Positions 35,304 through 45,660 of a stretch of 64,000 nucleotides of DNA are shown piece by piece. The stretch is from Paenibacillus ihbetae (GTDB lineage: Bacteria > Bacillota > Bacilli > Paenibacillales > Paenibacillaceae): assembly GCF_002741055.1 (NCBI RefSeq), contig NZ_CP016809.1:6426501-6490500 (forward strand), given 5' to 3'. Numbering within the stretch: the stretch's first letter is position 1; each line of letters begins with the position of its first letter. A program made the translations under genes and the position numbers. The notes beneath the pieces are model-generated. The model searched no databases. It was not told the DNA's origin and saw only the letters and a program-made list of their open reading frames with translations.

Positions 35304-35458
35304 TATATTGCGGATCGCGGCCACATCCCGAAGCGGAGGAGAAGGTACCTGCATGTTATTATACACGGAAGTAGCTAATTCGTCCTCGGCAGCGTCATCG
35401 CATAACGTCGACCAGTATACATGTTCCCGCTGCTAGCCGAGAAAGCAACGAAAAAAGA

Positions 35459-35515
35459 AACCTCTCCTTCGGTGAGATGGAAGTACAACCATCTATAGCT
35501 GGAGGAGAGGTTTTT
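35459..35515. terminator. Bidirectional terminator
   Basis: AACCTCTCCT (35459-35468) and AGGAGAGGTT (35503-35512) form a 10-bp stem, and an inner ATGG/CCAT pair adds structure. T-runs on both strands (35511-35515 plus, and the A-rich 35449-35460) end the enolase-type gene and the six-gene minus-strand cluster. Confidence 0.85.
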
Positions 35516-35534
35516 GCTGTATCCAATTGTCTCC

Positions 35535-37016
35535 TTATTGAGATTCAGGCGATTCTCCTAACCTTAACTTCAGCCAGCCTTCTACCGCTTTGATGGGAGA
35601 CGGAACCAGAAAGGCGTTTCCGTTGGATGGGTAGAGATTGGAAGTTTCAACCCATGCTCCATTCTCTCCGGGCGTGATAAATTCCCATTCTCTGTTGGGC
35701 AGCTGCGTCAGCGGCATTACATAGCTTTGTCCTCCGGCCAGCAGTGGACCTAAATAAAAGGTCAGATAGAGCCTGTTTAATGCAGCTTCAATCCGATCCG
35801 GAGGGAGGCGGTGTTCAACGACAGGCAGCATACCGCTTATGAGATGTATCGTTGCATACGGGTCCATAATCAGGGACAAGGCCGTTCCGCCCGTATATTC
35901 ACTAGCGGGAACATCGACCTGACGATTATGCCTGAAATAATCGGATGTGTACCCCGTATCGGCAAAAGCGCTGTTGAACTGCTTATATCCCGTGTGGTCA
36001 TGGTCGTCGTCATGAACAAAAAAGCCGATCATACCGTCCCCCGTATGATGGGTTTCGCCAATCCATAACGGCATCTTAAACTGGTTAATGGAGATATCCG
36101 GAGGGGAATCCGGCCCCTTAAAGGTTTCAAAAAATTTATAAGCCGCAGGGGGCCCGGCCTGCACCAGCTCGACACGTGCTTTCACCAAAGCCAGCGGTTT
36201 TCCAGCATATTGGCTTAAACCGGTTGAGCCAGTGGAATCGGGCTGATGGATTACCCACAAGGCCGAGTCGACCAGGTCAAGAAAAGGGGTGAGCACATCT
36301 TCCTTATGTTCACGGCTTCGGCGCAAAAACTCACTTAAGAAAGCTTTCATATCCGGATTTATACCATCTGGCAGTTCTGCGGATCCTCCTATCGAAGGCG
36401 CACTCTCCGGTGTGCCCGGCGCATTTCTCCAATGGACCCGGTCCCCTTCGTAGGCCGTCACGATTAGACTTCCAAGCATATAGCCGTCCTCATCGTAAAT
36501 CAGCAAGCTTTGATCCATATAATTCGGAATCATCCAGCCGCAAATGGGGGAATCCGGAAGATTAAAATCGCATTTTTCCCCGCTGCGGGCCTGAATCCAG
36601 TTGAAGTCCAGCCGGGTGGGCTGCATGAAGCGCGGAGGAAGCATCATGTACTGTCCAATCGGGAGAGGCGACATTCTCATATCTTCAGCGATGGCATATT
36701 GGCTGCATTGAACCTCCTGAAATTGTCCGAAGGTATCAATCAATCTGAGTTTATCCAGTTTAAACCAGCCTCCCCTTAAAGGAGAAAAAAACGTATTGAA
36801 CAATGGTTTTTCTACGCTATACTCCCCTAATGCCTCCCTGACCCGGGATGCCAGCTCCGCACTTCCAACATTGAAAACCATAATAGGAAAACGCAGTGCA
36901 AGCTGACTCATCAAGAATCGTTCATTAAAGCCTTCCAGGGTCTGGGACAGGTAATCCATCTGGGTCAGGTTCCCAAATTTCCGCGCTTCCTCTGCGCCCA
37001 ATTGCTTGAGCGTCAT
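35535..37016 (-). CDS. Uncharacterised protein, sixth gene of the DUF6603 cluster
   Basis: A 493-residue protein of unknown function, with no signal peptide, membrane helix or cysteine cluster. Visible features are an N-terminal helical FLSQTLEGFNERF-like segment (LSQTLEGFNERFLMSQLA), a central LPIGQYMMLPPRFMQPTRL, and an HDDDHDHTGYKQF stretch that could bind metal. ATG 37016 has a weak GCGGAG upstream and lies 17 bp after the preceding gene. Similar size and position suggest it is a structural or accessory component of the cluster. Confidence 0.75.
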   Translation of the reverse strand: MTLKQLGAEEARKFGNLTQMDYLSQTLEGFNERFLMSQLALRFPIMVFNVGSAELASRVREALGEYSVEKPLFNTFFSPLRGGWFKLDKLRLIDTFGQFQEVQCSQYAIAEDMRMSPLPIGQYMMLPPRFMQPTRLDFNWIQARSGEKCDFNLPDSPICGWMIPNYMDQSLLIYDEDGYMLGSLIVTAYEGDRVHWRNAPGTPESAPSIGGSAELPDGINPDMKAFLSEFLRRSREHKEDVLTPFLDLVDSALWVIHQPDSTGSTGLSQYAGKPLALVKARVELVQAGPPAAYKFFETFKGPDSPPDISINQFKMPLWIGETHHTGDGMIGFFVHDDDHDHTGYKQFNSAFADTGYTSDYFRHNRQVDVPASEYTGGTALSLIMDPYATIHLISGMLPVVEHRLPPDRIEAALNRLYLTFYLGPLLAGGQSYVMPLTQLPNREWEFITPGENGAWVETSNLYPSNGNAFLVPSPIKAVEGWLKLRLGESPESQ

Positions 37017-37033
37017 CGCATGAAGCTGCTCCG

Positions 37034-39082
37034 CTATATGGGGGTCAAAAAAATGCTGCCCTCAATCACCACAGACTCACGGGTATCCGGCTCCGAATTG
37101 TGATATACATAGTCAGTGCCTTGAAAATTCCAGTGATCAAGCTTCGGATGACTGCTGACAAGATTTTGGTCCGGATAATACAGCGCCCGCCAGCTAAGGA
37201 TTACAGGATTCCAAGGTTCACTCCAAACATTTAAAAACAGCGGGGCAGGCAGCTCCTGCCCTTTATCCAATATCCCTCTCTTGGTGATGTTCTCCAGTGC
37301 CTGGTTAACAACAGTATGCAAATAGGCATGCTCATCTTCCGACAATGGCAAAAGATCGAGCTGCTGAGCGATAAAAGTAACCAAAAGCTCGGCACAGTCC
37401 GATGTAAACAGCACCGCTTCAAGCAGCAATTCAGGATAGTTTCCTTTAACTTGCTTCCTGGCGAGCAGCTGATCAGTATGACAGGATACCGAATACGCGT
37501 TTTCTCTGAATTTAAAGTCAATGGTAAAGGACCGGATCGTTTCTCCGAGTAATCTGCATTTTAAAAGCTCTCCCGGGGCTAGGTTCGAATCAAAGAGATT
37601 TCCCCGGCTTGCGCCCGAGAGAAGAAGAACCGGCGAATTCGGCTCGTAGAACCGGTGGTCTGCCGTTTGCTCCAGATTATAGAAGCTGTGAATAGACCCG
37701 ACCAATTGTTGTTCAAGGATCTTGAGGTGTTCCCCGAGCTCCTCCAAGGCGGACTCTGTAAGTCCCAGCGCATGGATTTCCTTTGCCAGAGCCTCCTCAT
37801 ATTCCTTCATACTTGTTCTTGCCTGGTCATTTCCCAACGGTTCGACGGTGTAGGCAGTAATGATATATTTACACCAAAGATCATAGATTAACGATCGCTT
37901 TGCATCAGCATTAAATCGCTGCTTATAAAGCTCATCAAGTCCCTGCTGCAGGCTCCGGTACAGATGCTGCTCGTCTGGGGTTAATTCCGGCAGCTCTTGA
38001 TGATCACTGTCGCTGTTGCTGATTTTGCTCTGAAGCGTAAAGCTGTTTTGTTCCGCAACGATTTGGAAACGTTTCTTATGATCCATATAGTCAGCCTGAT
38101 AAATCCCGTCCAGGTTCACAAGCTTATGACTCTGATCATTTAGTAACACGCGCATTAAACGCTCGTTCGAGGATTGGTTTGTCGCATGCAGAGCGGAAAC
38201 CGCTTCAACGGAAGTATTTCCGACAGCCAGCTTCGGCATAGGAAGTCTTAAGATGAAGTGGCCGTTGTAATCCTTCTCGTCATCCACCCAGTGAAGGCCG
38301 GTGACAACCCCGTGCAGAACCGGAAAGGCGGGGTAAATCAAGCCCTCGGGGGGCTTCCAGCCAAACCGGTACCTGCAAATTTCCTCCGATTCGATCAGTG
38401 CCGGCTGATTTTGATAGTAACCCCGTATCACATAACTCACTCTGATATCTTCAAGACGATTCCCAAATTTGTCGCCCGCCAATAAATCATCATAAAAGCC
38501 GAATACATTGACATGATACGGATACATAGCAGAGAAAGCGGGGTTCCCGGGTCCCAGCGCATGAAGCTGCTGAAATCTTTCCAAAGGCTCACTCATGTTC
38601 GTTTCAATCGGGAAGGACCGGCCCAGGATCCTGTAAGGAAAGTCGGGATCATCAAGCTTGGGAAACGTCAAGCTGTCTTCATTTCCGAATTCCGGGCCTT
38701 TTTTCTTTTCCATCGCATCGCTCTCCACAACCCAGTGCTTGCAGGATACCCGTTCGGGCTGGGTTTTCGTCGACCACAGCCGGGAGACGATCCACCGGTT
38801 AGGAACTCTAGGATATTCGGGCTCAAGCTCTTCGTGCGTTTGATATCCCTGTCTCAGGCCCTCAGGCAAAATCCAGCTCAGATGGATTCCAGGCTTTTCC
38901 TGCGCCTTTTCACTCATCACCGGAGCGGGAACTTGATTGCCCAGCGGATCTCTGCCGATTTTGGAGAAATTATCGGCGATATCGGCAAAAACGGTAGGCG
39001 TTGGGGTTCTTCCGACCATCATCGCCTGGACCTTCATCGGAACGCACAATATATTATTTTTGGGTAAACTTGGTATCTCCAT
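37034..39082 (-). CDS. Uncharacterised protein, fifth gene of the DUF6603 cluster
   Basis: A 682-residue protein of an unnamed conserved type. Near the N-terminus it has PGIHLSWILPEGLRQG and PRVPNRWIVSRLW, a motif pair I associate with large bacterial conserved hypotheticals. The middle (about 380-470) is helical and charged. It carries no signal peptide or transmembrane helix. ATG 39082 follows GAGGTG and lies 53 bp after the previous gene. Function unknown. Confidence 0.78.
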   Translation of the reverse strand: MEIPSLPKNNILCVPMKVQAMMVGRTPTPTVFADIADNFSKIGRDPLGNQVPAPVMSEKAQEKPGIHLSWILPEGLRQGYQTHEELEPEYPRVPNRWIVSRLWSTKTQPERVSCKHWVVESDAMEKKKGPEFGNEDSLTFPKLDDPDFPYRILGRSFPIETNMSEPLERFQQLHALGPGNPAFSAMYPYHVNVFGFYDDLLAGDKFGNRLEDIRVSYVIRGYYQNQPALIESEEICRYRFGWKPPEGLIYPAFPVLHGVVTGLHWVDDEKDYNGHFILRLPMPKLAVGNTSVEAVSALHATNQSSNERLMRVLLNDQSHKLVNLDGIYQADYMDHKKRFQIVAEQNSFTLQSKISNSDSDHQELPELTPDEQHLYRSLQQGLDELYKQRFNADAKRSLIYDLWCKYIITAYTVEPLGNDQARTSMKEYEEALAKEIHALGLTESALEELGEHLKILEQQLVGSIHSFYNLEQTADHRFYEPNSPVLLLSGASRGNLFDSNLAPGELLKCRLLGETIRSFTIDFKFRENAYSVSCHTDQLLARKQVKGNYPELLLEAVLFTSDCAELLVTFIAQQLDLLPLSEDEHAYLHTVVNQALENITKRGILDKGQELPAPLFLNVWSEPWNPVILSWRALYYPDQNLVSSHPKLDHWNFQGTDYVYHNSEPDTRESVVIEGSIFLTPI

Positions 39083-39135
39083 TCCCCGGCACCTCGCCTC
39101 ATTCCATGTTTAATACCGCGAAAGCAATTCAATCT

Positions 39136-39996
39136 TTATTCGTCTTTCCGGACCACTTTTCCGATATACGGAGTTTTGATCATTTGAAGTGCAAACTCGG
39201 CGGAGGTTATCTCCTTTTTAAAATAAGCCTCCATATGCTTCGCCGTTTGATAGACATCAATAGTTCGCATCTTTTCGTTTTGCACGGCGACCTCAATCGA
39301 ATCCGATTCAGAGAGCAGCTCGCCGCTGTCCAAATTTCTGAGCCGTTTCATGTACCTGCCGTTAATATGGTTGAACCCGAAAAAATATCCTTCCGGCGGT
39401 TGATCCAGTTCGAGCGTATAGGGGATCCCTTCAAACAATCCGATCAACACATCGTCGGACAACAATTCGATTCGCAGCGGACGCAAAGGGGTGCCTTGGG
39501 AAGAAAGGGCCTTAAACTCCAGCCCGCGCCAGCCGCGGACCAAAGGCGATCGAAGGAGAAATCCCCCGATAGCTTGTACTTCCTCGTCCAGTTCCTTTGC
39601 CGTAACGGACTTGCTTTGAAGCAAGGGGCGGACCGCCTTCATTCTTTTGCCGATTTGGGAAATGACCGCATCGATTAATTCCTGGTCATGGGTCAGATCG
39701 AGGGAAGCGTTTCTTCCTAAGCTGCAAGCCCCGTCAACCAACGCCTGAAGCCAGTTGGGGTTTACATAAAACAAACGTATAGAGTCATCCGGCAGCATCG
39801 ATTCCGTAGGGATCAGATAATGAAAAGGCAAGTTCACCAGCAGGCATAATTGACTCAGCCAGCCGATCAATTCATCGTCCTGATGTTCCAGGCTCACAGG
39901 TTGATCTTTCGTGAGTGCAGCAAGCTCACCAAACACACGGCGGACATGCGTGCGGACAAGCTGAGGCGAATTATCCCAATCCATCCGGACGTGCAT
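39136..39996 (-). CDS. Uncharacterised protein, fourth gene of the DUF6603 cluster
   Basis: A 286-residue soluble protein of unknown function. Conserved-looking blocks are LIPTESMLPDDSIRLFYVNP at about 61-80, WLQALVDGACSLGR following it, and GFLLRSPLVRGWRGLEFKAL near 145-164. PPEGYFFGFNHING near 215 may be a loop. It overlaps the third gene by 26 bp, so translation is coupled. ATG 39996 follows GAGGTGATTACAG. Confidence 0.78.
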   Translation of the reverse strand: MHVRMDWDNSPQLVRTHVRRVFGELAALTKDQPVSLEHQDDELIGWLSQLCLLVNLPFHYLIPTESMLPDDSIRLFYVNPNWLQALVDGACSLGRNASLDLTHDQELIDAVISQIGKRMKAVRPLLQSKSVTAKELDEEVQAIGGFLLRSPLVRGWRGLEFKALSSQGTPLRPLRIELLSDDVLIGLFEGIPYTLELDQPPEGYFFGFNHINGRYMKRLRNLDSGELLSESDSIEVAVQNEKMRTIDVYQTAKHMEAYFKKEITSAEFALQMIKTPYIGKVVRKDE

Positions 39997-41344
39997 CTGT
40001 AATCACCTCATTCAGCAAAGTTTTGTATCGATCGTTCAACTGCTCTAACAGGATTTGTTTTCCGCTGGATTTGGTTTGAGGGTCCATTCCCTCTGGCGCC
40101 AGGGCTGTTTTGACAAAAGAATACCCGATGGAGCTCTCTTCCTTCCAATCCTGAACCCGTTTTTCATTGGAAGGTGAAGTAAGGTGCAGGCTCAAGAGCC
40201 CTTGATAGACTGAAGTCCGGGCCAGCGTTTCATTGCTTTGACGCCATGTATACAGCTTTTGGGCAAAAGACTGATCCGCCAGTGCCATCGACTTGCCGAT
40301 CTGCCATGCGCTGGAATAGCGAATATCCATCATCCCTATATCGGGATCATAAGCCAGAAGCTGGTCAGCGAAGCGAGCACACTTGACCGGGGCCTTCGTC
40401 TCCTCATAAGGAAGGAGCGGAGACTGGTACCAGGATACAACCTGGCTTCCGTCCCGAACAACATGATTGATTGGAAAGTAGCCGAGTTTGCACAGCTTTT
40501 GAATTTGTTCACTGCTTCCCTGATAAGGGGTGGACAGCATAGCTGCATTTAGTGACGTGAAGGCCGACCCGAAATCAAAGTCAACTTTTGCCATAGAAAA
40601 GCTCCAGTTTGCCAGCACGATCATCCTGGCCGTCTGGACATGTGCCAAGGTGTCCGATCGGCCTTGCTTGCTGCTGAGACAGGCCTCGTATCCTTCCAAT
40701 GATACGAGGCAGGCAGTATGTCGAATGGTTTGGCTGTCGTCGTCAGGGGCCAGGCAGAACCGATTTGAAACAATCGATGCGAACCAGTCATCCTTGACGG
40801 AAGCGTCGGTTACCTTACGATCCAGGCTTACGCCCTTTCCGTGGGCAAGCAGCGATAATGCTTCAGGGTACGGCAATATTTCCGAAAGAAGCTTCGCCGG
40901 AATATGTACATAGGTGCATGGATCTTCCGGCTTCTCATGATCCTCGAGGAGGAGAGAAGGAACAAAAACACCGCCTTCCGGCTGCAACGCTTTTCCTATC
41001 GTGCTTTCGTGGAGCTTAATGCTTTCCGTCTCGTCAAACACAAGGAGCGCCAGCCAGGGCATGTGGGACTGGCCCTTCAGCAAAGCCCTTTCCCAGGGAA
41101 GGGTTCTGCGGTTCAGCACAATATGGGGAAGGCATTCCGCATAGTTGCCTACAGCTTCCCTAGGCGGGTAGACGGAATAGATTTGTTCTGGAGACAGTTG
41201 AAATCTTTCGGATGAAACCTTGAAGTCGGTTGTTTCACTGGAGAGCCGGCAGTTGATATTGGTAACCTGCTCAACCTGGACCCGGTAGGTCCCGGCTTTT
41301 AACGGCGGTTCACATCTTTGTGAGAAACGAATGGATTCTCCCAT
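39971..41344 (-). CDS. Uncharacterised protein, third gene of the DUF6603 cluster
   Basis: A 457-residue protein with an N-terminal beta-rich segment (PPLKAGTYRVQVEQ) and a distinctive LPHIVLNRRTLPWER block at about 72-86, followed by MPWLALLVFDE. No enzyme motif is visible. ATG 41344 follows AAAGGAGCCTGATT. The 26-bp overlap with the next gene implies fixed stoichiometry. Function unknown. Confidence 0.78.
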   Translation of the reverse strand: MGESIRFSQRCEPPLKAGTYRVQVEQVTNINCRLSSETTDFKVSSERFQLSPEQIYSVYPPREAVGNYAECLPHIVLNRRTLPWERALLKGQSHMPWLALLVFDETESIKLHESTIGKALQPEGGVFVPSLLLEDHEKPEDPCTYVHIPAKLLSEILPYPEALSLLAHGKGVSLDRKVTDASVKDDWFASIVSNRFCLAPDDDSQTIRHTACLVSLEGYEACLSSKQGRSDTLAHVQTARMIVLANWSFSMAKVDFDFGSAFTSLNAAMLSTPYQGSSEQIQKLCKLGYFPINHVVRDGSQVVSWYQSPLLPYEETKAPVKCARFADQLLAYDPDIGMMDIRYSSAWQIGKSMALADQSFAQKLYTWRQSNETLARTSVYQGLLSLHLTSPSNEKRVQDWKEESSIGYSFVKTALAPEGMDPQTKSSGKQILLEQLNDRYKTLLNEVITDARPDGLG

Positions 41345-41375
41345 AATCAGGCTCCTTTCGTGTTATCGGTTAGAC

Positions 41376-44144
41376 CTAGCTTCCATGACTGCCTGTGGTA
41401 CGAAGAACGGGAACTGCGAAAAGCACGGCCTGCGGATCATCAGACAAAGCTCGCGTTTGTACCTGATTCCATGTTCCAAAGGCCGCCGCCGTATCCATAA
41501 GAAGCTGGTCCCGTCGGGGATTGCTGCCTATCGTGGTTTTAATGACATTTAGTACAGTTTCAGGCTCGCTGGGAAACACCTTTGGCGGTTCAAATGCGGG
41601 AGAGTGATAAACGGCTGTTCTGATAATCAGCTCTGATGAGCTTAGAACCGATTCGGCATAGCTGCCTTCCCGGGGAAGGATATGAATTAACGAAACCGGA
41701 TTTTGAACGGTAATGGACATGCCAACGGGCATATCCCTCATCAAAGGAGCGTCCGGCCCCGGGGCTCGGTTTCCCCATAAGGCGGAAGGCATATTTCTCA
41801 CCTCGGGAACGGCTTGCAGAAACGGTAGGGCTTGATCATCCTCCAGTCTCTTGATGGTGACGTGCTGTTCCATGCGAACATTGCTCAGCCCCATGGGCAC
41901 GATCCCAAATTCCGTTTTGTTCCGAAGCAGCCTCTGTCCGTTAAAGTACAAATCAGAGCAAGGCGTTTTTTGCTCGATCTTAAATCCTGCTCTGAAACCA
42001 TCGACGATATATACCACCTTGCCGTCCGCTTTTTGATATTGGTTGAGAAGTCCGCTGATAATAGAGATGCTGCCCAGTCTGGCAGCTCCGGCTGCTGTAG
42101 AACTCCCCAGCGCAAGCCTGGCTCTTCCGTCTCCGAAGGAACCGGGAATAAAGCTGTCCGCGAATTCGTCCCAGCCGATGGTTCGGGTCTCACGAGGATG
42201 GTCATCCCCGAAACCGATGGTGAAGGAGATAATGGTCCAATTGATTCTGACTTTTCCGGAAAATTTGGGCCCCCAGAGCGATAAATCTGCTCCCATCTCC
42301 ACCTTGAACGTTTTGCCGATGCCGAAGATTTTAACGCGGTAGGATACGCCGACGGATACCCGAACTCTGGCTTGGTAAAAGAACGGCTTCCACTTCAAAA
42401 TAAAATCGGCTGCAGCATAGAACCAGGCTTTCAGATTTCCCGACTCAAACAACAGCTGCAGGCTGACGCCGGCCATCATACAAGAAGGGGTCACGGCAAA
42501 ATAAGCGTCGCCTTTAATTGAGATATTGCGGTTGATGATCCAGGAAACACCGAGCGTCGGAATGATTGGATAATGGATGTTATGGAATGCCGGATGGTGG
42601 CATCCCCCCAAGGTGATGATGAAGTCGCCTTTATAGGTCCCGCTGAACCAGAACCCGATTGCAAAGCCTCCCTTGAGCTTACAAGCCGGGTCAAACAAGA
42701 AAGATCGGTCTGTCAAAGCCGCCATGATCAACAGTTCGCCATTTCCCGGATCAAATACGGCTTTCAGTGCAAGTTCGGCCCGCATAATCGGGCTTACTCC
42801 GGTCACTTTTGGCGGCATCGATGCATTAGATAGACCGAGCAGGGAAATGACCAGCCGATTACCCATTTCGATATTGAGCAGCGCAAAGCTCTCCAATACG
42901 CCATATGTCGTAAAACGAACCCCTGCCGATATGAAATATTGGCCCGAGGCGGGGACAATCGACTTGCTCAAGGCACCCAAGACCACCATCGGCGGTGTGT
43001 CCGGCCGGAGTGCCGTGTTATCTCCCATAGCAGCTTGCACCAAAGGGAAGGATCGGACTTGGGTCAAGTCGGGCAGCTTTAAGGACCGATTCACCCCGAG
43101 CCCAAACGCCAGGCCGTTAACAAAGAAGAAGGGCGGGCCCCCGAGCGGTAATCCCAGCATCAGGTAAGCAAAAAAGGTCATTTCTCCGCTGCCGGGCATC
43201 TCGCCGTAGGAGCCGAGAGCCTGCAGGCTGTATTGGCCGATTTTTATGCCCAAAACCCCGTTGTAAAGCGTCTTTTCTTCGGGTGATTTATATAATCCGC
43301 CCGTCAGGCTGAACCCGGGTTTCTCCAGCGTGACCATCAAACCGCTCAGTCCAAAGTCGAAATCACTCAGGTCTTTTAAAGAAGTCGACACGTTCAGTTC
43401 ATAAAAGTCCAGCCGGATTAACGAGATCGTAAAGCTTGCGTCGAGATATAACGTAACCTCGGATTCGACCAGACTGACTCCGATTTTGGAGAAATACAGG
43501 ACACCGAAGCCTTTATGGATATCAAGCCAATGGATGGTGTTTTTCGGAAGCTGAGAAGCATTTTCCGGTAACTGAGGAAGTGCAAGCTTATTTTTCAAGG
43601 ATTGGATATACTCGATATCCAGGTTAACGGCAAGCTGTTTAATGACTAGCTGAGCAAGAAATGAGAATTTGAAATCAACATTTGCCGTGTAACGCAAATC
43701 CAATCCTTTAAAGATGAAGCCGTCTCCGGGATTACAGAACCGACCGATGATCGGAAGGCTGGAGAGTTCCAACCTCCGATCATAGTCCAAAGCCAATTTA
43801 TAGCTTCCTGCCGGTTGGTTCGGGTTTTTCCACGCTTCCAGCGACAAATTGCCAAAATGACGTATGTCACCTTGAAAAACAAACCTGTTTTCGTCGGAAA
43901 AATATTGGATTCCGATGGATTCGATTACCAATTCGAAGTTCAAAAACTCCGGAAGCAGGATACCAAAATTATCGGCCACCTCATTCAATTCGAAGGAGAT
44001 GTTCGGGTTGACCCATTTCCCTGCAACGACAAGGCCTTCCTTTTTCTTGAGAAAAACAATTTGAAAGAGGGCCTCCCCGATATAAAACTCGCTGTGAAGC
44101 ACGACAGTCAATGATTTGGCGAATTCAGCATCGTAAGCTTTCAT
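41376..44144 (-). CDS. DUF6603-like large beta-rich protein
   Basis: A 922-residue protein with no signal peptide. The region about 480-670 fits DUF6603: GGCHHPAFHNIHYPIIPTLG, INRNISIKGDAYFAVTPSCM, a tryptophan-containing FILKWKPFFYQ, and VEMGADLSLWGPKFSG. Much of the protein alternates hydrophobic and polar residues, suggesting long amphipathic beta sheets. The last ~250 residues are a separate, less regular part. DUF6603 has no established function. ATG 44144 follows AAGGAG eleven bases upstream. Confidence 0.82.
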   Translation of the reverse strand: MKAYDAEFAKSLTVVLHSEFYIGEALFQIVFLKKKEGLVVAGKWVNPNISFELNEVADNFGILLPEFLNFELVIESIGIQYFSDENRFVFQGDIRHFGNLSLEAWKNPNQPAGSYKLALDYDRRLELSSLPIIGRFCNPGDGFIFKGLDLRYTANVDFKFSFLAQLVIKQLAVNLDIEYIQSLKNKLALPQLPENASQLPKNTIHWLDIHKGFGVLYFSKIGVSLVESEVTLYLDASFTISLIRLDFYELNVSTSLKDLSDFDFGLSGLMVTLEKPGFSLTGGLYKSPEEKTLYNGVLGIKIGQYSLQALGSYGEMPGSGEMTFFAYLMLGLPLGGPPFFFVNGLAFGLGVNRSLKLPDLTQVRSFPLVQAAMGDNTALRPDTPPMVVLGALSKSIVPASGQYFISAGVRFTTYGVLESFALLNIEMGNRLVISLLGLSNASMPPKVTGVSPIMRAELALKAVFDPGNGELLIMAALTDRSFLFDPACKLKGGFAIGFWFSGTYKGDFIITLGGCHHPAFHNIHYPIIPTLGVSWIINRNISIKGDAYFAVTPSCMMAGVSLQLLFESGNLKAWFYAAADFILKWKPFFYQARVRVSVGVSYRVKIFGIGKTFKVEMGADLSLWGPKFSGKVRINWTIISFTIGFGDDHPRETRTIGWDEFADSFIPGSFGDGRARLALGSSTAAGAARLGSISIISGLLNQYQKADGKVVYIVDGFRAGFKIEQKTPCSDLYFNGQRLLRNKTEFGIVPMGLSNVRMEQHVTIKRLEDDQALPFLQAVPEVRNMPSALWGNRAPGPDAPLMRDMPVGMSITVQNPVSLIHILPREGSYAESVLSSSELIIRTAVYHSPAFEPPKVFPSEPETVLNVIKTTIGSNPRRDQLLMDTAAAFGTWNQVQTRALSDDPQAVLFAVPVLRTTGSHGS

Positions 44145-44164
44145 CTTTTTGACGACTCCTTGGT

Positions 44165-44707
44165 TTAAGTTAAGAGCTGGTTAATATCTTCAAGCTTCAT
44201 GCGTTCTATAATTTTTTGGCGGTTGGTGTTATAGACGGCGATGCCGAGAGACTTGATATTAAAGAGCTTCAAGCTTTCATCCGGATGAACCGGATTTAAG
44301 ATGACAAAGTTAAAGGCATACTCGCAAGGCTTGGAGTTGGCCTTGATGCTGGACGAATCAACGTAAACGAAGAGCTGGCGGATTTGTACCTGAATATCCG
44401 CGAGGTTTTTCAGGCCCAGCGATTCAAGCGTAGACTTCATGCTTTCTTCGGTGACCTTCTGACCGCCGCCAAACGATTCGATAATGTTATTGATTTCGGT
44501 GACCAGCTCCGTCAGCGTCATGCTCTGAGCCTCAGGATCGGTAGGCATCACGAGGATCTTTGTTTTCTTTTCGTCTTCCCCGTTTTGCCCCTTGATCACT
44601 TGATACTGATAGACGCCCTTGAGATTACAGTTCAGAATCGTCAAATCCACAAAAGCCAGAACATTGTTGCCTCCTGCGGCTTCGATGTTTAATACCTCTT
44701 GACTCAT
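44165..44707 (-). CDS. Uncharacterised protein, first gene of the DUF6603 cluster
   Basis: A 180-residue soluble protein, first of the six-gene operon. It looks alpha/beta, with a helical linker (TLTELVTEINNIIESFGGG) in the middle and beta strands toward the end. No motif is recognised. ATG 44707 is preferred since GGAGAGG is nine bases upstream; ATG 44716 and longer frames lack a site. Its position 20 bp before the DUF6603-like gene suggests a partner or chaperone. Confidence 0.75.
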   Translation of the reverse strand: MSQEVLNIEAAGGNNVLAFVDLTILNCNLKGVYQYQVIKGQNGEDEKKTKILVMPTDPEAQSMTLTELVTEINNIIESFGGGQKVTEESMKSTLESLGLKNLADIQVQIRQLFVYVDSSSIKANSKPCEYAFNFVILNPVHPDESLKLFNIKSLGIAVYNTNRQKIIERMKLEDINQLLT

Positions 44708-44716
44708 TTCATTCAT

Positions 44717-45071
44717 CCTCTCCACGTAAATGATTAACTTAAGCTGATGTATAAGAAAGCTGCGATGCTGAATCGCCAATTGTAACCAGATGATCCGAGA
44801 AGAATTTCTCTTGCTAAAAATTGACCGCTAATACAGTATGTGATGAATTGGCAATTCATTACGATTACATGGGGAGGGATGACTGTTCATGAACGGATGG
44901 TGATTTTGTGCAAAGAGCAGGGTTCATCCCTTCACTACACGTAAAAAAGCACAACGGCAAACAGCCCATTGTCAAATGGGCTATGGGTCTCAGAATATTC
45001 CTTGCGGTTTTGTTGTTAATAACGAAGAGTTGTTGAAAGTTACAGAAATAGTTCGGATATTGCTGGCTATT
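44717..45071. other. Upstream region of the six-gene cluster
   Basis: This gap should contain the cluster promoter, but I could not settle on -35/-10 boxes. A perfect hairpin AGCCCATT-GTCA-AATGGGCT lies at 44963-44982 without a T-run. A short plus-strand frame (44976-45176) overlaps the membrane-protein gene and is not supported. Confidence 0.45.
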
Positions 45072-45488
45072 TCAAGACGATCTTTCCGGGCTTCTCCGAA
45101 TGAAATAAGAATAAACAGCGATTTCAATGACGATCACGAGATATCCCCAGGTAAAGGAGCGGGAGGATGTCATTGATTCAACAATCAAATGATACAGCAA
45201 AGTAAACACTAAATGCAGCAGGGTCCCGATTAAGATGAACTTAGGTTTTCTAAAGGAAAGATAGAGCACATAGAATACGATGCTGGAGATGCATAAGAGG
45301 GAGTACAACCAAGTAATAGGGACAAGTGCAATCATCAATCCGAATCCGTTTTCATAAGAGGCTGTGAGGCTGCCTAAAAGGTCGAACAAGATGACGGTAT
45401 TCAGAAGCACGAGATATGTAATCAATAAACAAAGCAAAAGCACAACACAGGTATTTCGTTTTCTGATTATGTTTGTCGGTATTAGCAC
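45072..45488 (-). CDS. Hypothetical four-helix membrane protein
   Basis: A 138-residue protein with four hydrophobic segments and basic termini (NIIRKRN and RRSPERSS). No family is recognised. GTG 45488 is chosen because GGGAGG lies six bases upstream; a TTG at 45506 is in frame but overlaps that site. Monocistronic. Confidence 0.65.
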   Translation of the reverse strand: MLIPTNIIRKRNTCVVLLLCLLITYLVLLNTVILFDLLGSLTASYENGFGLMIALVPITWLYSLLCISSIVFYVLYLSFRKPKFILIGTLLHLVFTLLYHLIVESMTSSRSFTWGYLVIVIEIAVYSYFIRRSPERSS

Positions 45489-45660
45489 AGTTTTCCTCCC
45501 TTTCAAGATAACACCATCATAATTTATAGTATTGATTTAGACAATGCTTTCATGCTCACTGAATATTGACAAAAAGGAACGAGACAAATTAGAATCGGAA
45601 CGGTATGTGCGTACCGGGCAGCTGCGATATTTGAACGTTTAGAACCTATGGACTTTAAAA

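What the first reader, a model, noticed from the sequence alone, without database searches (positions are those of the whole stretch)
35535..44707. Six-gene cluster around a DUF6603-like protein, function unknown
Six minus-strand genes (180, 922, 457, 286, 682 and 493 aa) are packed with gaps of 53 bp or less and one 26-bp overlap, ending at a strong terminator. None shows a signal peptide, a membrane helix or a known catalytic motif, yet all have distinctive conserved-looking blocks. The 922-aa protein has a DUF6603-like region and long alternating hydrophobic/polar stretches, suggesting extended amphipathic beta sheet. With no transport, regulatory or phage genes attached, it may encode a self-contained multiprotein assembly. 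Function is not assigned.
Basis: partly seen in the sequence, partly recalled or inferred. Interest (0 to 1): 0.85.

Follow-up and report, generated by a model that had tools for sequence, protein, structure and literature searches.

The report
Widespread unexplained DUF6603 gene system
This soil-type bacterium carries a small block of genes of unknown function whose relatives are found side by side in very different groups of bacteria, which suggests that they build one shared protein machine that still has to be worked out; in this copy one of the genes is split in two.

Summary
The six ORFs are real, but are best read as five genes: the 682- and 493-aa ORFs are two halves of one ~1,190-aa gene ("L"), split by a one-base frame break near 37,040. 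Only the 922-aa protein matches a family (DUF6603, E 1e-136). The genes form a true system. In 52 loci with 7 kb held on both sides of DUF6603, the 457- and 286-aa families (g3, g4; often fused as "M") occur in 52 and L in 50. In 295 Paenibacillaceae-level genomes the same 9 carry M and L, all beside DUF6603. The families co-evolve (Mantel r 0.80-0.88) and are under purifying selection (dN/dS 0.05-0.14). A close relative has an empty site, so the cluster comes and goes as a ~10-kb block. Many relatives add proteins with a shared Ig-like-looking domain ("D") plus variable ends; D is fused to L in five loci. My reading: a constant scaffold complex, made without Sec signals, that carries exchangeable binding arms; the window holds a minimal, arm-less and possibly impaired copy. 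The architecture is well supported; complex formation, location and function are inferred.

The parts
35531..45497 (.). Block of about 9.97 kb absent from the close relative G002 (empty site; edges good to about 15 bp)
   Evidence: BLASTN and direct comparison with L097; no notable repeats at the ends
44165..44707 (-). g1, 180 aa, small protein upstream of DUF6603; relatives found in Bacillota only
   Evidence: 9 of 80 loci; dN/dS 0.10 and 0.05
41376..44144 (-). g2, 922 aa, DUF6603 (PF20248) protein, core
   Evidence: E 1.1e-136; beta-type periodicity z 3.9
39971..41344 (-). g3, 457 aa, first half of M, core
   Evidence: 78 of 80 loci; no Pfam family above cut-off
39136..39996 (-). g4, 286 aa, second half of M, core
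   Evidence: 77 of 80 loci; fused with g3 in 51, separate in 26
37034..39082 (-). g5, 682 aa, first part of the split L gene
   Evidence: matches residues 1-681 of the 1183-aa P0047
35535..37016 (-). g6, 493 aa, second part of the split L gene
   Evidence: matches residues 690-1181 of P0047
37017..37060 (-). Region of the frame break that splits L (one-base length difference to L004 and L005, near 37,040, beside a run of T)
45072..45506 (-). 144-aa hydrophobic ORF overlapping the upstream edge of the block; not assigned to the core
   Evidence: block edges
35450..35515 (.). Hairpin terminator downstream of g6; lies in the flank shared with the cluster-less relative
   Evidence: fold; shared flank

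Best explanation
The cluster is one copy of a widespread system for which I found no name. Its constant core is DUF6603, M (g3+g4) and L (g5+g6), with a small helper (g1) in Bacillota. SHOWN: the core families occur together, co-evolve, are under purifying selection, and are present or absent as a block. INFERRED: they form one large soluble complex, made without Sec signals. D-domain proteins, which many copies add, would dock on it, probably on L, through their Ig-like-looking part and present variable ends (LamG, kelch, propeller) to a target, most likely outside the cell. The system would be a carrier of exchangeable binding or effector arms used in contacts with other cells or surfaces. 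The window holds the minimal form without arms and with its L gene split, so this copy may be impaired.
For: Linkage: 52, 52 and 50 of 52 well-covered loci have g3, g4 and L beside DUF6603; the same 9 of 295 genomes have M and L, next to DUF6603. Co-evolution: Mantel r 0.80, 0.88 and 0.84 in 60 of 80 loci, 0 of 1000 permutations reach them. Selection: dN/dS 0.045-0.140 for all six ORFs against two relatives. Block gain or loss: empty site in G002. Fusions: g3+g4 in 51 loci, D on the end of L in 5 loci (4 Chitinophaga, 1 Emticicia). D belongs to the system: in 295 genomes it is found in 5, all of them core-bearing and all near the core; of 55 D ORFs in the 80 loci, 41 lie within 300 bp of a core ORF (5 of these are L itself) and 53 within 3 kb. 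The parts after D vary: 57 of them fall into 16 BLAST clusters, while the 67 D segments fall into 7. LamG, kelch, propeller and S74 matches in accessory proteins. No signal peptide in the six.
Against: No complex, structure or location was shown. D is absent from the window's own genome, so the arms cannot explain this copy. Ig-like, LamG and propeller domains also occur inside cells, so 'outside' is weak; some accessory families (F13, F18) do begin with signal-like stretches, unlike D. L is split here, and 3 of 72 relatives have short L ORFs, so L may not always be needed. L050 and L071 show no L in the DNA held. DUF6603 also occurs without M and L in G078, among other large genes. D was defined by profile iteration, which can drift.
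Confidence: 0.45

Rival explanations
1. An intracellular conflict or defence complex: the core senses an invader in the cytoplasm, and D and other accessory proteins are sensors or effectors.
For: Patchy spread (9 of 295 genomes), presence on plasmids, block gain or loss, no signal peptides; one Streptomyces plasmid copy lies 5-10 kb from genes annotated CATRA and CHAT.
Against: No PADLOC model matches any of the six; no constant nuclease, NTPase or other effector in the core; the CATRA neighbourhood is a single case.
Confidence: 0.2
2. A lipid or hydrophobic-ligand handling machine: the amphipathic beta sheets of DUF6603 form a groove or cavity, with M and L as partners.
For: Beta-type periodicity only in DUF6603; a 3,670-aa DUF6603 protein (L052) holds an alpha/beta-hydrolase-like stretch (PGAP1 E 0.0012, LCAT E 0.005, both under cut-off); a PLD-like gene near the P. 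polymyxa plasmid copy and one annotated so near the P. sonchi copy.
Against: Only sequence periodicity was measured; the hydrolase stretch was tested in one locus, with no such match in two other long DUF6603 proteins, L049 and L060; M and L show no lipid-related family.
Confidence: 0.2
3. A particle derived from phage tails or contractile injection systems.
For: No signal peptides; two of 65 accessory proteins match Peptidase_S74 and one matches Phage Tail Collar just under cut-off (22.4 of 24 bits); the P. polymyxa plasmid copy lies about 9 kb from two 'baseplate assembly protein V' genes and a DUF4280 gene.
Against: No relative of DUF6603 or M confirmed in viral contigs, none of DUF6603 or L in 50,697 phage records, no PHROG match better than E 0.068 for the six. 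L was not scanned in viral contigs (one search failed).
Confidence: 0.1

Closest known systems
Pfam DUF6603 (PF20248)
   Same: g2 matches positions 1-453 of 502 with 456.8 bits
   Different: The Pfam entry names a domain of unknown function, not a system; g3, g4, L and D are not in it
Polymorphic toxin or adhesin systems (constant part plus variable C-terminal ends; definition recalled, also seen in passages of PMC12419801)
   Same: Constant core, variable ends after a shared domain; Hint domain at the end of F5 proteins in some Bacillota copies
   Different: No toxin domain, secretion signal or immunity gene in the window's cluster; the variability lies in optional accessory proteins
Phage tails and contractile injection systems (recalled)
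   Same: Multi-gene, no signal peptides, a few fibre-like accessory domains
   Different: No sequence relation found; no sheath, tube, spike or ATPase family among the recurrent neighbours tested

Membership tests
DUF6603 (PF20248) | Pfam profile above gathering score | tested here: met
   456.8 bits against 27
Polymorphic toxin system | Variable C-terminal ends after a constant domain | tested here: inconclusive
   Seen for D proteins of relatives, absent from the window's genome
Polymorphic toxin system | Toxin domain and immunity gene | tested here: not met
   None in the window's cluster by Pfam, NCBIfam or PADLOC; relatives were only sampled
Phage tail or contractile injection system | Sequence relation to tail, sheath, baseplate or phage proteins | tested here: not met
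Phage tail or contractile injection system | Tail-type folds in M or L | not testable with these tools
   structure prediction switched off
Known anti-phage defence system | Match to a PADLOC model | tested here: not met
   0 of 6 proteins at E up to 1
Beta-groove lipid-transfer protein | Hydrophobic groove or cavity lined by beta sheet | not testable with these tools
   only sequence periodicity was measured

The most novel reading that the evidence does not exclude
The DUF6603-M-L core is an undescribed kind of bacterial protein machine spread by horizontal transfer across many phyla: a fixed scaffold without Sec signals that is loaded with exchangeable D-domain arms (lectin-like, propeller, kelch) for contacts with other cells, unrelated to phage tails, secretion systems or known toxin complexes.
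Probability: 0.3. Interest if true: 0.85.

Novelty: categorically new. Interest (0 to 1): 0.68.

Why it matters
A core of large proteins without assigned function, kept together from Paenibacillus to cyanobacteria, Bacteroidota, Proteobacteria and Actinomycetota, is unlikely to be trivial. Four searches of the held paper library for DUF6603 or PF20248 returned no paper; subscription papers and preprints are not held, and M, L and D have no name to search for. g3, g4 and both parts of L match no family above cut-off in Pfam and none in NCBIfam or PADLOC. The work here turns 'hypothetical proteins' into a defined system with a core, an optional D-protein family, fusions that predict contacts, an empty site for comparison, and a clear first experiment. 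'Categorically new' rests on the lack of relatives by sequence; a comparison of folds could still place it near something known.

Tried and rejected
Structure prediction was the obvious test and was not available, so no fold search was made. Profiles of DUF6603, M, g4 and D found no solved structure; L matched helical or coiled-coil chains in its middle part (best E 0.0017, a designed helical protein) and g1 only at E 0.27 or worse: read as chance. The F5 profile hit inteins and Hint domains (best E 4.4e-11). Phage origin: no relative found. Remote homology of g1 to DUF6603 and of L to M: none. M or L in the genes beside the other DUF6603 gene of G078: none by profile search nor in two pairwise comparisons. 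A transposon as carrier: no notable repeats at the block ends; no transposase noticed in the translations. Base composition: block 48.9% G+C, rest of the window 46.9%, not informative. PMC12419801 (passages seen) is about another superfamily. Searches on domain combinations and on DUF6765/PF20551 gave nothing of use; the Paenibacillus ihbetae search was seen as a listing only.

Limits: the genome scan used one peptide pattern and kept the best 80 of 180 relatives, so counts describe that sample. One search used 60 of the 80 loci, dropping those that lacked one of the three proteins or had a short one. One search scanned 65 accessory proteins picked by hand, mostly from the 112, leaving out near-duplicates; several are plain neighbours (for example a SpoVAD gene), so its single-member families are not claimed as parts. 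(F5 in the own genome: none) had no positive control. The 3 short L ORFs (L031, L035, L067) were not studied.
Full report
WHAT IS THERE. The window lies at 6,426,501-6,490,500 of a 6.59-Mb single-contig genome whose DUF6603 protein is 97% identical to one named Paenibacillus ihbetae. g2 is a DUF6603 protein (E 1.1e-136). The other five match no family above its cut-off in Pfam, none in NCBIfam and none in PADLOC; the best PHROG value is 0.068. Hydropathy shows no signal peptide or membrane helix. Beta-type periodicity is above chance in g2 alone (z 3.9).

FIVE GENES, NOT SIX. In relatives g5 and g6 are one ORF, here called L. Of 80 loci, 72 have an L ORF, one each: 61 are 1,021-1,465 aa long, 8 are cut by the end of the DNA held, and 3 (L031, L035, L067) are short without being at an end; those 3 may be broken too. 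Against L004 (89% DNA identity) and L005 (80%) the window differs in length by one base near 37,040, beside a run of T, and the genome search finds the two parts as separate pieces. A protein search with g5 found 15 relatives: 14 of 1,049-1,190 aa and one of 496 aa on a 12-kb contig. Both parts still show purifying selection (dN/dS 0.12-0.14). So the break is recent, an assembly error, or bypassed; the tools cannot tell. g3 and g4 are likewise one ORF (M) in 51 loci and separate in 26.

THE SYSTEM IS REAL AND WIDESPREAD. One scan of the species-genome collection found 180 relatives of g2, of which the best 80 were kept. By record title they come from Bacillota, Bacteroidota, Proteobacteria, Cyanobacteria, Actinomycetota, Acidobacteriota, Chloroflexota and several other groups. 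g3 occurs in 78, g4 in 77 and L in 72 of the 80; in the 52 loci with at least 7 kb held on both sides of DUF6603 the numbers are 52, 52 and 50, L050 and L071 lacking L. L lies downstream of DUF6603 on the same strand in 49, upstream in 22 and on the other strand in 1 (L007). In 295 genomes of the family, DUF6603 occurs in 11 (10 over cut-off), L in 9 and M in 9, and those 9 are the same genomes, with the genes in one neighbourhood. The exceptions are G078, where DUF6603 has other large neighbours, and G113, a weak match. Distance matrices of DUF6603, g3 and L from 60 of the 80 loci correlate at r 0.80, 0.88 and 0.84, and 0 of 1000 permutations reach that; among distant pairs r is 0.46-0.64. 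All six ORFs have dN/dS between 0.045 and 0.140 against two relatives.

IT COMES AND GOES AS A BLOCK. G002, whose two flanking proteins are 97% identical, has no DUF6603. Its DNA aligns with the window up to 35,544 and again from 45,498, with the two ends meeting: an empty site for about 9.97 kb. The block ends carry no notable repeats. Other ORFs lie in the same intergenic region of G002. Plasmids also carry the core: P. polymyxa p-YT9A and a Streptomyces plasmid.

EXTRA PARTS IN RELATIVES. Genes next to the core look diverse, but an iterated profile joins many of them through one domain of about 220 aa, here called D (86 proteins). It reads to me like two Ig-like sandwiches; no solved structure matches. 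A strict D profile finds 67 of 1,063 proteins, in 54 loci. In the 295 genomes D occurs in 5, all of them core-bearing and all near the core. In the 80 loci, 55 D ORFs were found: 41 within 300 bp of a core ORF (including the 5 L fusions) and 53 within 3 kb. The parts after D fall into 16 BLAST clusters among 57 proteins, against 7 clusters for 67 D segments. Accessory proteins match LamG (6 of 65), kelch (3), S74 (2) and Hint (4 for Hom_end_hint). D is fused to the end of L in five loci, four Chitinophaga and one Emticicia. G080 has four D proteins in a row. Nine of 80 loci, all Bacillota, have F5, a protein whose last part aligns as a Hint domain (PDB profile match E 4.4e-11; most single Pfam Hint scores are under cut-off). 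Neither D nor F5 was found in the window's genome, and the closest relatives L086 and L091 show no D or F5 gene beside the core.

HOW IT MOST LIKELY WORKS. Shown: linkage, co-evolution, selection, presence or absence as a block, fusions. Inferred from these: DUF6603, M and L form one complex; g1 helps in Bacillota; D proteins are optional, exchangeable arms that dock on L. Inferred with less weight: the complex works outside the producing cell, because the variable ends are of kinds often used for binding outside. The window copy would be a minimal form, possibly impaired. I put 0.45 on this reading as a whole; that the genes form one functional system is far more certain than what it does or where.

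WHAT IT IS NOT, AS FAR AS TESTED. No phage or viral relative (L was not scanned in viral contigs), no PADLOC model, no toxin family in the window's cluster. Four library searches for the family name or accession found no paper.

Noticed in passing
Perhaps another undescribed system.
   Followed up: partly
   Followed up: partly
L006, L007, L012, L014, L016, L017, L018, L019, L074, L088, L090 (F5 genes): A protein with a Hint domain at its very end and little after it, so cleavage would release or attach the N-terminal part rather than free a cargo.
   Followed up: partly
L052 2468-13480: A 3,670-aa DUF6603 protein with an alpha/beta-hydrolase-like stretch inside (PGAP1 and LCAT matches under cut-off).
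   Followed up: partly
L010 3666-5651 and 6033-8087: DUF4135 (E 6e-22 for the first gene) in a gene family directly upstream of DUF6603 in three Chitinophaga loci (L010, L011, L013).
   Followed up: no
L084 3454-8449: Two genes annotated 'baseplate assembly protein V' with a DUF4280 gene and a GH-E nuclease gene, about 9 kb from the core on a P. polymyxa plasmid.
   Followed up: no
L098 11343-19092: A P. sonchi plasmid with an M-like gene but no DUF6603 match in the plasmid search; perhaps a decayed copy.
   Followed up: no
window 35531-45640 against L097 5430-8550: The intergenic site that holds the cluster carries other ORFs in G002, so it may be a variable spot of the chromosome.
   Followed up: partly
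L029 5377-7800, L057 6870-8111 and similar genes: Metallo-beta-lactamase-fold genes directly upstream of DUF6603 in several loci with L on the upstream side.
   Followed up: no
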